Of a stretch of 64,000 bases of DNA, positions 5,607 through 25,745 are shown one piece after another. The translations under genes were made by a program, and so were the position numbers. The stretch covers positions 2,404,001-2,468,000 of the forward strand of contig NC_013960.1 of NCBI RefSeq assembly GCF_000024725.1, in the 5' to 3' direction. Numbering within the stretch: position 1 is the first letter of the stretch; each line of letters opens with the position of its first letter. The notes under the pieces were generated by a model that ran no database searches, was not told the DNA's origin, and worked only from the letters and a program-made list of their open reading frames with translations. Origin of the DNA: Nitrosococcus halophilus Nc 4 (lineage in GTDB: Bacteria; Pseudomonadota; Gammaproteobacteria; Nitrosococcales; Nitrosococcaceae).

Positions 5607-7076
5607 ATGCCTCAAATTATGAATACTAATATTATGTCGCTAAATGCGCAGCGGAATCTCGATCGTTCCCAGAGCACCTTGCAGACCTCGTTACAGCGTT
5701 TGTCCTCAGGCTTGCGGATCAATAGCGCCAAGGATGATGCTGCTGGCCTGGCCATCACCGACCGGATGACGGCTCAAATTCGCGGTCTTAATCAAGCCGC
5801 CCGTAATGCCAACGATGGGATCTCTTTGGCCCAGACCGCAGAAGGTGCGTTGCATGAATCTACCAGCCTCCTGCAGCGGGTGCGCGAGTTGGCGGTCCAG
5901 TCCGCCAACGACACCAACACGGATGCTGATCGTACAAGCCTGCAGAACGAAGTGACTCAGCTCATTGCTGAGATGAACCGCATTGCCAGCAGCACTCAGT
6001 TCAACGGCAAGAGCCTGCTAGATGGCAGCTTGAGCAATGCGATCTTCCATGTGGGCGCTAATGCCGATCAGACCATTTCCGTAGGCATTGATGATGCCCG
6101 CACTAGCCGCTTGGGCGCCAATGCCACGCTAACCTCTACGGGGACTGCGGTCAGCGACGGCCAGAGCGCTGCGCTGACCAGCCCGAGCGGGGTCCTCGAG
6201 ATCAACGGTACCGCCATCACCGTGACCTCGGATGGCCTATCGACACGAGATGCAGCTGCCTCCGCCAATGCCGTGGCTGCGGGCATCAACGCCTTGTCCG
6301 CTACTACAGGGGTTTCTGCCACAGCCAATGCTACCACGGCCAATTTGGGGACCATCACGGCCGCTGCTACTGGTTTTGCTGCGGGCGATTTTGCTATCAA
6401 CGGTATCAATATCACCGCGGGGGCTATAGCGAGTGGTGATTCCGACAGCGCGTTGCGGGATGCCATCAATGCCGTGCAGAATCAAACCGGCGTGACGGCG
6501 GCCCTGAATTCCAGCAATGAATTGGTATTGACGGCTGCCGATGGTCGCAACATACAGCTAGAAACCGATGGTACCCAGGCTGACGGCGTTTCCGTATTCG
6601 GTGCCGCGACCTTTGATACCAATGGCGGTTCAGCAGTTGATATTGTAACGGTAGGAACGGTGACCCTCGACAGCGATGAAGCCTTCGTGGTGGATACGGG
6701 TATCACCCAGGCGACTCATGGCATGGCCATTACCGCAGGTACCTATAATGTGGATACCAGCAATGCCATGGAAAACGTGGATATTTCGACTCAATCTGGG
6801 GCCAACAGCGCCCTCGCCAATGTTGATCGGGCTCTTTCACAGATTGATTCCATGCGGGGTGATTTGGGTGCGCTTCAGAACCGTTTTCAATCCACTATCT
6901 CGAATCTGGAGAATGTCTCTGAGAATCTGTCAGCGGCGCGTTCCCGAATCCGGGATGCGGATTTCGCCGCTGAGACAGCGGAATTGACCCGCAATCAGAT
7001 CCTCCAGCAGGCAGGGACTGCCATGTTGGCCCAGGCCAACTCGCTGCCGCAAAACGTACTGAGTCTGCTCCAGTAA
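5607..7076 (+). CDS. fliC: Flagellin FliC
   Basis: Filament subunit, 489 aa. The N-terminal D0/D1 block ([20 protein letters not shown], then [19 protein letters not shown]) and the C-terminal block ([20 protein letters not shown], ending [12 protein letters not shown]) are canonical. The central part, about residues 170-390, is Ala/Thr/Gly-rich and is the variable surface domain. The start at 5607 has a good ribosome site (GAGGGAGGA); an in-frame ATG four codons further is an alternative that gives the more usual MNTNI start. A sigma-28 promoter lies upstream and a strong hairpin just downstream. Confidence 0.97.
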
Positions 7077-22643: not shown

Positions 22644-22708
22644 GGTGTTCTCCAGCGGTTTCTAGTCCTGGAATTTTAACGGGTTTTTGCCGCAGGTTTA
22701 GCAAGCGG

Positions 22709-23035
22709 TTAGGCCAGTGCTTCCAGGCCCTTCTGATCGACCAGATTCAGCAATTTCAAGGAGGGGCCATTAGGCTTTTTCTGTCCTTGTTCCCATTTCT
22801 GTACTGTTGAAGGACTAGTATTGAGGTAAGCGGCGAACACCGCCTGGCTGGCTTTGTTTCTGGTCCGGATACGCTTGATCTGCGCTGGGGTATACTGCTT
22901 TATCGGTGGCAGGCATAGGGCGTCGAACTCACGCATGGTTTTGGCATCCATTACCCCGGCCTTGTGCAGCCCATGGGCCGTTTCGTGCACCGCTTCCAGG
23001 AGTGATTGATAGCGTTTCCCGAGTAAATGGAGCAT
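22709..23035 (-). CDS. HTH-type regulator, antitoxin-like (HigA/NadS/YiaG type), apparently without toxin
   Basis: 108 aa. A helix-turn-helix of the Xre/HigA kind lies at about residues 50-95 (YTPAQIKRIRTRNKASQAVF, AAYLNTSPSTVQKWEQGQKK, then PNGPSLKLLNLV). The N-terminal half looks like the dimer arm of antitoxins paired with RelE/HigB toxins. The toxin gene would be expected immediately upstream on the same strand (above 23035), but there are only about 190 bp there, holding repeat fragments and no RelE-like frame. It is therefore an orphan antitoxin or a plain regulator. Confidence 0.75.
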   Translation of the reverse strand: MLHLLGKRYQSLLEAVHETAHGLHKAGVMDAKTMREFDALCLPPIKQYTPAQIKRIRTRNKASQAVFAAYLNTSPSTVQKWEQGQKKPNGPSLKLLNLVDQKGLEALA

Positions 23036-23070
23036 GAATACTAACCTACCAGGACCTTAACTTCTTAGCC

Positions 23071-23103
23071 TAACTATATCTCTCCTATAAGGAAAACGCT
23101 ATA
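23071..23103 (-). repeat. Solo end of the 94-bp MITE-like repeat
   Basis: Read on the minus strand it is TATAGCGTTTTCCTTATAGG followed by AGAGATATAGTTAG, matching the left end of the full copies at 23793 and 24754 apart from a few bases. No partner end is visible nearby. It lies 36 bp upstream of the HTH gene start and so may contribute to its promoter region. Confidence 0.65.
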
Positions 23104-23135
23104 TTGGTCATTGTTGATCACCCCTCATGAATCTT

Positions 23136-23167
23136 GCGTTTATTCGCGTGCATTTGCGGCCAAAACC
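23136..23167 (+). repeat. Degenerate GCGTTTATTCGCGTGCAT... repeat
   Basis: GCGTTTATTCGCGTGCATTT followed by GCGGCCAAAACC. Read in reverse, the same sequence occurs at 9756-9793 with few changes, and a looser copy at 9861-9890. This motif family with its 10-12 base period (GCGT..AT..GCGT..AT..GCGGC) is a dispersed bacterial repeat that I recognise by pattern; its role is unknown. Confidence 0.6.
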
Positions 23168-23224
23168 CCTTTAAGATAATAAATATGAACCCGGATGCCT
23201 TGGTTAAAACCATTACTTTTAGCA

Positions 23225-23776
23225 ATGTGGAAAGTTTTTCTTAGTTCTACCGCCCGGGATCTCGCTGATTACCGCCAGGCAGTGTATGAGGCGATCCACC
23301 GTCTCGATGGTTTCCATTGTGTGCGGATGGAAGATTTCGGGGCCCGTGATACGGTCGCAGATACATTTTGCCGGGAGAAGGTGGCGAAGGGAAAAGAAGG
23401 CCAAGCCTACCCCTGGGGCAATGAACCGGATTCTAACAAAGCCAATTATATTGATACGGGGATTGGCGCCACCAGCCCCGTAGGCTGTTTCCCAGGCGGG
23501 GCTAGTCCTTACGGTTGCGAGGAGATGAGCGGCAATGTCTGGGAGTGGACCCGCAGCCTTAAGGGCGATTATCCCTATCCCGAGGAAGGCAAAGAACGGC
23601 AGAAGCGGGAGGATTTGCGGGCCCGGGTGTTGCGTGGCGGCGCGTTTAATTCTGGTGCCAAGCTCGTGCGCTGCGCTTACCGCTTCCCCAACGCTCCTGT
23701 CGTTCTTGCCCTCTTCATTGGGTTTCGAGTGGTGGTGTCCCCCTTTTCTCTGACCGATGAATCCTCTGATCTCTGA
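23225..23776 (+). CDS. Shrunken DUF4062-FGE-sulfatase fusion; C-terminus resembles a DGR variable protein
   Basis: 183 aa from ATG 23225 ([20 protein letters not shown]...). Residues 1-55 are the start of a DUF4062 domain, a module of signalling and defence-like proteins. At about residue 55-60 ([20 protein letters not shown]) the sequence jumps into the C-terminal part of a formylglycine-generating-enzyme/C-type-lectin fold ([31 protein letters not shown], then RVLRGGAF ... [10 protein letters not shown]). The rest of DUF4062, any middle domain and the first half of the FGE domain are missing, so this is an in-frame deletion remnant or a minimal derivative. Residues 141-164 look like a hypervariable patch (see 23631-23740). 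No strong ribosome site is seen. Confidence 0.72.
23631..23740 (+). other. Candidate DGR variable region (VR) at the 3' end of the FGE-like gene
   Basis: This encodes the segment between LRGG and IGFRVVVS. Compared with usual template-repeat proteins of this family, which are full of Asn (AAC/AAT) codons, the matching positions here read ttt, aat, tct, ggt, gcc, ctc, tgc, tac, ttc, ccc, aac, gct, gtc, gtt, ctt, gcc, ctc, ttc. All end in C or T while the first two bases vary, the footprint expected from adenine-specific mutagenic retrohoming. The flanks (RVLRGG, VRCAYR, IGFRVVV) stay conserved. No reverse transcriptase, Avd or template repeat is in this window, so the system would have to act from elsewhere. 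Confidence 0.6.
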
Positions 23777-23792
23777 TCCGCCGCGCTGGTTT

Positions 23793-23886
23793 ACAGCGTT
23801 TCCCAAATAGGAGAGATACGGTTGGATTGAGAACGTAAGGCCCGACTAAGCCGATATTCGTATCTCATTTATTCGGGAAACGCTAT
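23793..23886 (+). repeat. MITE-like repeat, copy 1 (94 bp)
   Basis: Begins ACAGCGTTTCCC and ends GGGAAACGCTAT. The terminal inverted repeats extend to about 27 bases (…AAATAGGAGAGATACG against CGTATCTCATTTATTC…). It has the same length as copy 2 at 24754 and is about three-quarters identical to it. It carries no coding capacity. It lies 16 bp after the FGE-like gene and 19 bp before the IS1-family element. Confidence 0.8.
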
Positions 23887-23930
23887 AAGCCTAGATGAGA
23901 AGTTTGGTAGTCCTGCATTATGAGTGATAA

Positions 23931-24374
23931 TCAGGATCGGGTTGTTGGGCAAAGGGTCGCATTATAATGGTGGACAAAATACCAAATAGCGCCGACATGG
24001 TTTTCTAATTTCTTGGAGAAAGAGAGTGCTTTTCTGACTAAACGCGAAACACGCTGTCTGAGCGTACAATTAAAGCGTTCAATGTGGCTTGTTTGTCCCG
24101 TTTCTTTGCCCACGCTGCGATGGCGTGGCCCTGGGAAGATAGCCTCATAGGCTTCCCAAAAATCGGTGTAACTTACGGCCCGCTGCCGATAAACGGCGGG
24201 TAAGGACTGCCATAATCCTTGTGCCCCTGTTTGACTCCGATCGCCGATATAAACCCCCACAACTTCTTGGGTGTCCCTATCGAACGCTAACCACACCCAT
24301 TGTTTATTGCCCTTTCTGGCGACAAACGACCAAAGCTCATCGCACTCAAGGGTTAAACGAGCTCTGGACTTTTT
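23931..24374 (-). CDS. IS1-family transposase, InsB-like catalytic part (via -1 frameshift)
   Basis: About 147 residues in the -1 frame relative to the InsA-like frame, beginning at the A8 run. The DDE residues can be assigned as Asp in LECDELWSFV, Asp in AVSYTDFWEAY and Glu in SHIERFNCTLRQRV. The first frame-local start (GTG 24296) lies after the first Asp, so an independent product would be inactive; this argues for the frameshift fusion. The stop TGA at 23931-23933 lies inside the left inverted repeat region. Confidence 0.87.
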   Translation of the reverse strand, partial: KKSRARLTLECDELWSFVARKGNKQWVWLAFDRDTQEVVGVYIGDRSQTGAQGLWQSLPAVYRQRAVSYTDFWEAYEAIFPGPRHRSVGKETGQTSHIERFNCTLRQRVSRLVRKALSFSKKLENHVGAIWYFVHHYNATLCPTTRS

Positions 24375-24649
24375 TTTATCTCCACTCGCCGCGGTGTATG
24401 CGCATATTTATCGTTCACATAATATTGCAACCAGCGCTCTGAAACGCCCGTGACTCGGACAATCCCTGCCAGCGGAATTCTCTCTAAGAGCAATTTATCA
24501 ATCAGCTCTTTCGTCTCTTGAGTAATGGAGCAATTCTTGGGGTCCTCCACGAATTGCCGACCGCAGACTTTGCATAAAAATTTGGGTGTCCCGACCCCAT
24601 TACTCCCATTTTTGACAATATGAGTACCACCGCATCGGGGACAGTTCAT
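24353..24649 (-). CDS. IS1-family transposase, InsA-like part (zinc finger/HTH)
   Basis: 98 aa from the ATG at 24649, preceded by a clear AAGGAG. The N-terminal zinc-ribbon motif is CPRCGG...CKVCGRQF, followed by a helix-turn-helix (LLLERIPLAGIVRVTGVSER). The frame ends in EIKKSPELV just after the A8 run; slipping back one base there gives KKKSRARLTLECDELWSF and joins the DDE part. As in IS1, the unshifted product would act as a repressor and the fused product as transposase. Confidence 0.88.
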   Translation of the reverse strand: MNCPRCGGTHIVKNGSNGVGTPKFLCKVCGRQFVEDPKNCSITQETKELIDKLLLERIPLAGIVRVTGVSERWLQYYVNDKYAHTPRRVEIKKSPELV

Positions 24650-24753
24650 GGCTATCTCCTTGAGAAATCTATACATACATAATATAAATATAGCGCATAA
24701 TCACTCAATATGCAGCACTACCGAGAAGTTTTGTGATGAATTCATACCAATTT

Positions 24754-24847
24754 ATAGCGTTTCCCTTATAGGAGAGGTACAGTTAAATTGAGGGATTAGG
24801 GTCCTGGTAGATTGATATTTGTGTCTCATCTATTCGGGAAACGCTAT
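24754..24847 (+). repeat. MITE-like repeat, copy 2 (94 bp)
   Basis: ATAGCGTTTCCC ... GGGAAACGCTAT, with the same layout and exact length as copy 1. It starts 22 bp after the right target duplication of the IS element and ends 24 bp before the start of the HepT-like gene, so it forms that operon's leader. The two copies lie in the same orientation. Confidence 0.8.
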
Positions 24848-24871
24848 GGCAAAAGGATGGAGAAACGCACA

Positions 24872-25297
24872 ATGAGTGCACAAGACATCCGCTGGATACA
24901 GCGTTTCAACCACTACAAGATGGCGTTGGCGCGGCTGGAAGAGGCGGTCGACCTTGCAGGGCAGCGTCCCCTCTCCCGGCTGGAAGAGCAGGGGTTGATT
25001 CAAGCTTTTGAATTTACCCACGAACTAGCATGGAATACGCTCAAAGACTTCCTGGAAAACCTCGGCGTAGGCCCTTTGTATGGTTCCAAAGACTCGACCC
25101 GCGCAGCATTCAAACGCGGTTTGCTGGAAAACGGCGAAATCTGGATGGACATGATTCGTGACCGTAACCTGACTTCTCACTCCTACAATGAAGACACTGC
25201 AAGAAGCATTGCCTCGGCCATCCTGGATTTTTATTATCCGGAATTCTGTGTACTGGTGCGGAAATTGGAAGGATTAAAATACACCCATCCAGAATGA
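24872..25297 (+). CDS. HEPN-domain toxin of HepT/HI0074 type
   Basis: 141 aa, all-helical, of the nucleotidyltransferase substrate-binding (HI0074) group. The HEPN catalytic motif RX4HXY is present as RNLTSHSY (R98, H103, Y105). In HepT this motif cuts RNA, and the Tyr is the residue AMPylated by the partner. ATG 24872 gives the family start MSAQDIRWIQRF; upstream ATGs at 24812 and 24857 are in frame but less likely, one lying in the MITE copy. It overlaps the antitoxin by 4 bp (ATGA). Confidence 0.88.
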   Translation: MSAQDIRWIQRFNHYKMALARLEEAVDLAGQRPLSRLEEQGLIQAFEFTHELAWNTLKDFLENLGVGPLYGSKDSTRAAFKRGLLENGEIWMDMIRDRNLTSHSYNEDTARSIASAILDFYYPEFCVLVRKLEGLKYTHPE

Positions 25298-25605
25298 AAT
25301 ACGGTCTGAGAGAATCTGTCATCGAGAAAATCTGCGCCGTTCTGGCTCGCCATCCGCAGGTAGAAAAGGCGATTCTGTATGGCTCGCGCGCTAGAGGGAA
25401 TTACAAGACCGGCTCGGATATTGACCTGACTCTAGTAGGCGGCGCCGGTTTGACTCTCTCGGTGTTGGGCAAAATCATGGATGAACTCGACGACTTGCTT
25501 TTGCCTTACACTTTTGATCTCTCCATTTTTAACCAGATCAGCGATCCTGAGGTCATCGACCATATCCGGCGTGTGGGGGTTGTATTCTATGAACGGAGGG
25601 AGTAG
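25294..25605 (+). CDS. Minimal nucleotidyltransferase antitoxin (MntA/HI0073 type)
   Basis: 103 aa. The nucleotidyltransferase motif GSX10DXD is exact: G30-S31, then RARGNYKTGS, then D42-I43-D44. The third carboxylate is probably in YTFDLSIFN. In characterised pairs MntA blocks HepT by adding AMP to its Tyr. It is translationally coupled to the HepT-like gene by the 4-bp overlap. A small GC hairpin (25631-25646) follows at about 25 bp. Confidence 0.9.
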   Translation: MKYGLRESVIEKICAVLARHPQVEKAILYGSRARGNYKTGSDIDLTLVGGAGLTLSVLGKIMDELDDLLLPYTFDLSIFNQISDPEVIDHIRRVGVVFYERRE

Positions 25606-25745
25606 ACACGCCAAAATAGCATCAAAAAAAGGCGCGCCATTGCGCCATTATTGATGCGCTGGTTTCGGATCGATAATTGGCCTCGGAGTGCTACAACATA
25701 AAGGCTTATCTTCCCTGGAATATGTTATCCTCTGGAATCATTTGA

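What the first reader, a model, noticed from the sequence alone, without database searches (positions are those of the whole stretch)
23631..23740. Candidate diversity-generating-retroelement variable region at the end of an FGE-like gene
Seen: between conserved LRGG and IGFRVVV flanks, 18 codons that correspond to Asn-rich positions of typical DGR template proteins are ttt, aat, tct, ggt, gcc, ctc, tgc, tac, ttc, ccc, aac, gct, gtc, gtt, ctt, gcc, ctc, ttc. All keep a pyrimidine third base while first and second bases differ, as A-specific mutagenesis of AAC/AAT would leave. Known: FGE-sulfatase (C-type-lectin fold) proteins, often with DUF4062 or TIR N-termini, are DGR targets in Chromatiales and other groups. 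Inferred: this is a remote target of a DGR located elsewhere in the genome. This is the strongest candidate for an unusual system in the window.
Basis: partly seen in the sequence, partly recalled or inferred. Interest (0 to 1): 0.75.

Follow-up and report, generated by a model that had tools for sequence, protein, structure and literature searches.

The report
Fossil target of a lost mutation engine
The flagged stretch is most likely the leftover tip of a large immune-sensor-like gene that a DNA-diversifying retroelement once mutated on purpose; in this bacterium the gene has lost its middle and the machine that mutated it looks broken, so it is probably a relic and not a working system.

Summary
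The gene (23225-23776) is an in-frame remnant: a DUF4062 piece joined to the second half of an FGE (C-type-lectin) domain, lacking about 890 residues found in an intact relative, L023 (DUF4062-NACHT-FGE). Relatives L027 and L032 have a DGR-type reverse transcriptase on the same contig; L032 also has a template that differs from its variable region only at adenines in the aligned blocks. In the window's own genome the only DGR-type RT found is a 128-residue C-terminal fragment with a broken YxDD motif, overlapping a fragment of the DGR accessory gene avd, 0.9 Mb away behind another STAND-FGE gene. Three searches found no template repeat; the last method finds templates in control genomes. Best reading: a DGR-derived variable region frozen after its DGR decayed, in a gene that was itself deleted inside a transposon- and MITE-rich insert between pyrF and tgt. 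Decayed DGRs are already described.

The parts
23225..23776 (+). Short fused gene (183 aa from ATG 23225; 193 aa if started at ATG 23195): DUF4062 start joined to the second half of an FGE domain; internally deleted remnant
   Evidence: Pfam: DUF4062 profile 1-52 of 82 and FGE-sulfatase profile 122-254 of 255; BLASTP to L023 in two pieces, residues 13-64 (71%) and 954-1079 (60%)
23231..23389 (+). DUF4062 remnant
   Evidence: 71% identical to L023 residues 13-64
23384..23734 (+). C-terminal half of FGE / C-type-lectin domain
   Evidence: 60% identical to L023 residues 954-1079
23642..23719 (+). Variable-region-like core (26 codons between RGG and GFR)
   Evidence: ungapped match to nine DGR templates; 10 of 10 and 16 of 16 NNY at AAY columns
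23720..23743 (+). Conserved 3' end of the VR ([25 protein letters not shown]). In relatives L114 and L120 the VR reads GTCCCC where the template reads GTCCAC: an IMH-like position
   Evidence: sequences printed; 'IMH-like' is my inference
23748..23779 (+). Short CTCTG / CTGATCTCTG repeats at and just after the gene end, shared with DGR-target ends
   Evidence: CTGAT[CT][TC]CTG in 15 of 113 VR-end flanks, its only copy in the window at 23766; YTCTG count 3 here, mean 3.5 in 10 template-linked VR ends, 0.6 in 10 control FGE ends
23009..23103 (-). MITE-like element, inverted copy upstream of the gene
23792..23886 (+). MITE-like element starting 15 bp after the stop codon
   Evidence: 20 matches listed in the genome
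24753..24847 (+). Third MITE-like copy
23931..24676 (-). IS1-type transposase genes (DDE_Tnp_IS1; InsA-like zinc ribbon, the latter 25.6 bits against a cut-off of 26.1)
22687..25708 (.). About 3.0 kb insert between pyrF and tgt; the other three genomes of the genus that were looked at lack it (two empty, one with a different insert)

Best explanation
This is a fossil of a DGR-diversified sensor gene. (1) An ancestor was a DUF4062-NACHT-FGE protein of about 1080 residues, like L023, whose C-terminal lectin-like face was rewritten by a DGR: a reverse transcriptase copied an Asn-rich template, put random bases at its adenines, and the cDNA replaced the 3' end of the gene (mechanism inferred from intact relatives and the DGR literature; not shown here). 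(2) The variant present at the last round was frozen when the DGR decayed. The genome now has only the C-terminal third of a DGR RT, half an avd gene and no detectable template. (3) The gene also lost about 890 internal codons in frame, leaving a DUF4062 stub joined to half an FGE domain, in an insert rich in MITEs and transposases between pyrF and tgt. Shown: the gap relative to an intact relative, the broken RT and avd, the failure to find a template, the empty pyrF-tgt site in two of three sister genomes. Inferred: that this VR was once written by the DGR now broken at C2:1.515 Mb or by a sister of it, the order of steps 2 and 3, and that the remnant has no function.
For: Two-piece match to intact L023. 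Of the ten best relatives (L023-L032) nine keep the ungapped VR layout and the tenth, L032, has it with a shifted frame. L027 and L032 have a DGR-type RT (GLPIGNLTSQ) on the same contig; L032's template and VR differ at 23 adenines and at no other base in two aligned blocks separated by a small length difference. Six of nine relatives' genomes have full-length hits to the DGR RT profile with E below 1e-140. Own genome: RT fragment E 2.1e-37, profile positions 234-348 of 357, VDH where L032 has VDD; bAvd fragment just over the Pfam cut-off and NF033474 at 47.9 bits, below its cut-off of 80; both directly behind an open 814-codon bDLD3-nSTAND1-FGE gene with a TIR-bDLD3 neighbour. Window identity to the template consensus is 0.73 at 30 non-A columns and 0.25 at 24 A columns. 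The 3' flank repeats are shared with most template-linked VRs. Empty pyrF-tgt site in two of three sister genomes.
Against: No cognate template was found, so adenine specificity cannot be tested directly. The test against foreign templates does not discriminate: L033, an FGE end whose DGR status I did not test, shows A-site enrichment about as strong as the window's. NNY at 10 of 10 columns also occurs in 27 of 82 VR-like segments, and some segments with no known template also reach the non-A identity of true VRs (L039 0.70, L047 0.67, L033 and L034 0.63). The closest relative, L023, matches neither of the two template-like stretches compared from its own genome (22 non-A mismatches each), and two of the nine relatives' genomes gave no RT hit, so membership of this clade does not prove that a given VR was written by a DGR.
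Confidence: 0.8

Rival explanations
1. One reading: the region is a live remote target, rewritten in trans by an intact DGR elsewhere in this genome or on an element not in the assembly.
For: VR layout and 3' end look intact; remote DGR targets are described for cyanobacteria (PMC7517822, passages).
Against: Only a truncated RT with a broken YxDD motif and an avd fragment; no template by DNA, protein or profile search, although the profile finds two template-like stretches not used to build it at 72 and 79 bits in control genomes. The target gene lacks NACHT and half of the FGE domain.
Confidence: 0.05
2. An ordinary FGE-domain gene that was never DGR-diversified; the variable columns are just the variable face of the fold.
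For: Heterologous A-site enrichment is not specific (L033); 16 of the 68 comparison segments also score 10 of 10 NNY (counted by hand from the rows; they include eight segments of L023-L031, which I take to be DGR-type).
Against: Nearest relatives look like DGR targets, two with the RT on the contig; non-A identity 0.73 lies inside the 0.63-0.83 of the ten template-linked VRs (whose templates partly made the consensus) and above the 0.30-0.47 of other FGE genes of the same bacterial family, L006 and L017-L020; shared 3' repeats; broken DGR cassette in the genome.
Confidence: 0.12
3. The 183-residue fusion is a working small protein, domesticated after the deletion, and not a dead remnant. Compatible with DGR ancestry.
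For: The frame is open across the join and to the end.
Against: Both Pfam domains are cut at the join. In a model of the intact L023 FGE domain the confident core is about its first 145 residues, of which this gene lacks about 139. The model of the fusion has mean pLDDT 38, but its alignment was shallow and the C-terminal half is also poorly modelled in the intact control, so this is weak.
Confidence: 0.12

Closest known systems
DGR targets with STAND/NACHT NTPase and C-terminal FGE/CLec domain, as in Thiohalocapsa PB-PSB1 (PMC10907252; abstract, passages and section 7 seen)
   Same: NTPase plus C-terminal FGE/CLec sensor with the VR; transposons and MITE-like repeats invade the loci and have replaced RT or TR in some
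   Different: There other loci keep RT and TR and the VRs are diversified in nature; here RT and avd are fragments, no template was found, and the window target lacks its NTPase
Remote variable proteins, VP homologues and degraded DGRs of cyanobacteria (PMC7517822; passages)
   Same: A paralogue with remnant TR-VR homology and no nearby RT; a cassette reduced to an RT flanked by transposases in Anabaena sp. 90; 'removal of diversification components' already proposed
   Different: Different phylum; here the remnant target also has a large internal deletion
DUF4062-NACHT-FGE protein L023 (Methylococcaceae MAG)
   Same: 71% and 60% identity in the two retained pieces
   Different: L023 is 1081 aa with complete domains
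Truncated DGR RTs noted in the DiGReF survey (PMC3521204; passages)
   Same: RT genes cut by transposon, nonsense or frameshift
   Different: 'Nitrosococc' does not occur in its main text

Membership tests
DGR target gene (variable protein) | Encodes a C-type-lectin/FGE (or other display) scaffold with the VR at its 3' end | tested here: met
   FGE-sulfatase profile to position 254 of 255; VR-like core 23642-23719 ends 54 bp before the stop codon. Only the second half of the scaffold is left
DGR target gene (variable protein) | Near-identical template repeat whose differences fall on template adenines | tested here: not met
   No template found in this genome; shown for relatives L032, L093, L111, L112, L115-L117, L122
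DGR target gene (variable protein) | NNY codons at AAY template columns | tested here: inconclusive
   10 of 10 and 16 of 16, but the templates are from other genomes and 27 of 82 VR-like segments do as well on the 10
Active DGR in this genome | Intact DGR RT with the SQ motif and YxDD | tested here: not met
   128-aa C-terminal fragment, VDH for VDD, SQ region absent; the other RTs found are one with best PADLOC match RT_VI (type VI retron) and a group II intron maturase fragment
Active DGR in this genome | Accessory gene avd | tested here: not met
   Only profile positions 53-106 of 107, on the strand opposite to the RT fragment; a second, intact avd elsewhere was not searched for
DUF4062-NACHT-FGE sensor protein | Complete DUF4062, NACHT and FGE domains | tested here: not met
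   DUF4062 1-52 of 82, no NACHT, FGE 122-254 of 255
DUF4062-NACHT-FGE sensor protein | Anti-phage activity | not testable with these tools
   No PADLOC match at E <= 0.001 for the window protein

The most novel reading that the evidence does not exclude
The CTCTG-type repeat array just 3' of FGE-type variable regions is a conserved cis-acting homing signal of this DGR lineage across phyla, which survives in fossils and so lets orphaned or frozen DGR targets be recognised without RT or template. On that reading this organism kept a small set of once-diversified sensors (window gene, C2:1.515 Mb STAND-FGE, perhaps C2:3.087 Mb kinase-FGE) as a frozen repertoire after discarding the mutator.
Probability: 0.3. 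Interest if true: 0.5.

Novelty: new member of a known kind. Interest (0 to 1): 0.3.

Why it matters
It turns a striking candidate into a case of DGR decay in an ammonia-oxidiser lineage (organism name recalled from genome size): broken RT, half an avd, no template, an open STAND-FGE target left behind and a second target collapsed by deletion. It shows that a VR-like gene end does not imply an active DGR; in two Methylococcaceae MAGs, too, VR-like ends (31 and 40 profile hits) far outnumber the template-like stretches. The shared 3' repeats, if confirmed, would give a sequence tag for finding former DGR targets.

Tried and rejected
Pfam RVT_1 alone would have missed the DGR remnant: it matched only a group II intron fragment and a retron-type RT. 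The remnant appeared with a profile of six DGR RTs. A template inside the 18 kb around the relict RT, in the window, or in L001/L002: none. Other weak own-genome hits were read and rejected: C2:2959727 (a short frame with a stop, overlapping longer unrelated frames), C2:3712778 (inside an unrelated 164-codon frame) and C2:501676 (antisense to a long unrelated frame). Fisher tests against foreign templates were rejected as a discriminator. The structure model of the fusion was uninformative. Passages of PMC8144416 and PMC6642488 were searched and add nothing used here. No paper found ties DGRs to this genus: 'diversity-generating retroelement' + Nitrosococcus, 0 papers; 'retroelement' + Nitrosococcus, 2 papers, seen in the listing only, neither about DGRs by title. 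The library holds only openly licensed papers.

Full report
What is there. The window lies at C2:2404001-2468000 of a two-contig, 4.15 Mb genome. Its contig sizes fit Nitrosococcus halophilus Nc4; that name is recalled and comes from no call. The finding sits at the 3' end of an ORF that runs from ATG 23195 or 23225 to stop 23776. Pfam sees the first 52 of 82 positions of DUF4062 and positions 122-254 of 255 of the FGE domain, meeting at about residue 64 of the 193-aa reading. BLASTP to the closest relative, L023 (1081 aa: DUF4062, NACHT, FGE), splits into two pieces: window residues 4-55 (183-aa numbering) to L023 13-64 (71%) and 51-173 to 954-1079 (60%). About 890 residues are missing in frame, including all of NACHT and half of FGE.

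The codon pattern. Nine Asn-rich templates from related DGRs align without gaps between RGG and GFR (a tenth, from L073, departs in its first half and was left out of these counts). On their columns, 15 of the 18 codons fall where at least one template has AAC/AAT and three do not. At the 10 majority AAY columns the window is 10 of 10 NNY; at the 16 any-AAY columns, 16 of 16. Window identity to the template consensus is 0.73 at non-A columns and 0.25 at A columns. The ten VRs with an adenine-specific template in the same locus (L093, L109, L111, L112 twice, L116, L117, L120-L122) range over 0.63-0.83 at non-A columns, although seven of those loci also supplied templates to the consensus; FGE genes of the same bacterial family (L006, L017-L020) range over 0.30-0.47. 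Against this, L033, L034, L039 and L047, with no template known to me, reach 0.63-0.70; 27 of 82 VR-like segments also score 10 of 10; and A-site enrichment against foreign templates is about as strong in L033. The codon pattern alone is therefore suggestive only.

Relatives. A motif scan of the 102 loci then held found DGR-type RTs (G[LI]PIGNLTSQ) in six: L027, L032, L054, L073, L088, L093. Template/VR pairs with adenine-biased differences were found in L032 (23 A, 0 other in two blocks), L054 (15 A, 1 other) and L093 (15 A, 2 other); no such pair in L027, and in L028 and L088 the best pairs were not adenine-limited. A scan of the 20 loci L103-L122 gave adenine-specific pairs in 11, e.g. L111, L112, L115-L117, L122 (L111 14 A, 0 other; L112 23 A, 0 other). 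Of nine genomes holding near relatives, seven matched the RT profile at E <= 0.001; six of them have full-length hits below 1e-140, one (G065) only 1.4e-32, and two (G064, G068) none; all nine are titled MAG. Of the window's order (63 genomes), 14 match the profile at E <= 0.001, the best after the own genome at 3.1e-30, far weaker than the relatives' RTs; I did not classify them.

The window's own genome. RVT_1 matches two places: a group II intron maturase fragment (RVT_1 plus GIIM) and an RT whose best PADLOC match is RT_VI of retrons. The DGR RT profile matches two places: the group II fragment again (1.3e-8) and C2:1514906-1515247 (-), E 2.1e-37, covering only profile positions 234-348 of 357. 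The latter is a 128-aa ORF, 50% identical to L032's RT from residue 242 on, with VDH where L032 has VDD; everything before it, including the SQ motif, is missing. On the other strand, overlapping its start, is a 60-aa ORF matching bAvd (Pfam, 41.9 bits, cut-off 40) and NF033474 DivGenRetAVD (47.9 bits, below its cut-off of 80), profile positions 53-106. Just upstream is an open 814-codon bDLD3-nSTAND1-FGE gene with a VR-like end, preceded by a TIR-bDLD3 gene; downstream is a DDE transposase ORF. This looks like a dead DGR cassette behind a surviving target, about 0.91 Mb from the window gene.

Template search. DNA search with the whole gene: only itself. Protein search with the L032 template translation, E up to 10: three FGE gene ends (the window gene, C2:3086655, C2:1515620) and one chance hit. 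Sequence profile R1 from ten templates or template-like stretches: five places at E <= 10, namely the same three gene ends (42.7, 36.5 and 21.9 bits, the window last) and two chance hits. In control genomes the same profile finds four template-like stretches at 72-89 bits; two of those (L136, L137) were not used to build it. A template of quite different sequence could be missed, but a template for this VR must share its non-A bases.

Setting. In two of the three other genomes of the genus that are held, pyrF and tgt blocks are about 105 bp apart; in the third a different 3.6 kb insert with GGDEF/PAS and KaiC-like genes lies there; in the window genome the insert is about 22687-25708. It holds an HTH gene, the remnant, an IS1-type transposase pair, a nucleotidyltransferase pair and three copies of a 95-bp MITE-like element. 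The element gave 20 matches at E <= 0.001 in the genome; two bracket the remnant in inverted orientation and another lies about 65 bp after the kinase-FGE gene at C2:3.087 Mb. MITE-like arrays replacing RT or TR are described in Thiohalocapsa DGR loci (PMC10907252 section 7).

The 3' flank. CTGAT[CT][TC]CTG occurs within 100 nt after the VR in 15 of 113 ends (the window included) against 0.0013 expected per flank, and its only copy in the window is at 23766. The motif was chosen after looking at the ends printed (window, L004, L023, L026, L027, L028, L032); 10 of the 15 hits are in ends not looked at before, though some of these are related to each other. YTCTG averages 3.5 per 120 nt in 10 template-linked ends (three of them have 0 or 1), 0.6 in 10 control FGE ends and 1.16 in 112 others; the window has 3, L004 has 1, the kinase-FGE gene 0. 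At two or more copies: 7 of 10 linked, 1 of 10 control, P 0.01. The linked set lacks L032 (shifted frame) and L111 (not counted as linked there); of 16 named control loci, 6 gave no row. YCTGA averages 0.76 per 120 nt downstream of 110 ends, 0.13 inside the same genes and 0.22 in shuffled flanks.

Structure. The fusion models at mean pLDDT 38 (11 rows, shallow).

Verdict. DGR ancestry with decay: likely (0.8). Active DGR target: very unlikely in this assembly (0.05). Relics of this sort are in print for cyanobacteria and Thiohalocapsa, so this is a new member of a known kind, of modest interest; the repeats after the VR are the part most worth a follow-up.

Noticed in passing
L123 (C2:1506001-1524000), C2:1514882-1518852: Relict DGR: TIR-bDLD3 gene, open bDLD3-nSTAND1-FGE target, avd fragment (+ strand) and RT C-terminal fragment (- strand), then a DDE transposase.
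   Followed up: yes
C2:3086487-3086927 (L005, L128): A protein kinase / peptidoglycan-binding / FGE gene with a VR-like end that scores highest of the own genome with the template profile (42.7 bits), with a MITE-like element about 65 bp after it; it lacks the CTCTG repeats.
   Followed up: partly
G063 and G069 (genomes of L023 and L030): Methylococcaceae MAGs with 31 and 40 hits of the template profile at E <= 1: dozens of VR-like ends. In G063 twelve loci (template loci included) were compared with two template-like stretches and only the VR beside its template is adenine-limited; in G069 twelve loci were compared with one of two template-like stretches (L132; L136 not used), with the same result.
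   Followed up: partly
23748-23779 and VR ends in many loci: CTCTG / CTGATCTCTG short repeats immediately 3' of DGR-type variable regions in several phyla.
   Followed up: partly
23009-23103, 23792-23886, 24753-24847: MITE-like 95-bp element with inverted ends, 20 matches in the genome; the first copy overlaps the start of the HTH ORF 22709-23035, so that ORF's first residues seem to derive from it.
   Followed up: partly
22687-25708: pyrF-tgt seems an insertion hotspot in the genus: empty in two genomes, a GGDEF/PAS plus KaiC-like insert in one, this insert in the window genome.
   Followed up: yes
24812-25605: Nucleotidyltransferase and its substrate-binding partner (NTase_sub_bind, Polbeta), a HEPN/MNT-like pair (that label is recalled).
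   Followed up: no
C2:1154005-1154559 (L002): RT with best PADLOC match RT_VI (type VI retron), next to a small ORF that looks like an HTH regulator (not tested).
   Followed up: no
L028 (4566-4799 + and about 5957-6116 on the - strand): Two VR-bearing ends in inverted orientation, identical over 60 nt of their 3' tails but with different VRs, in a Thermoflexus MAG contig.
   Followed up: no
L032 8439-8570 and 10250-10345: The L032 variable region is frame-shifted relative to its template by a small length difference, so its protein end reads out of frame.
   Followed up: no
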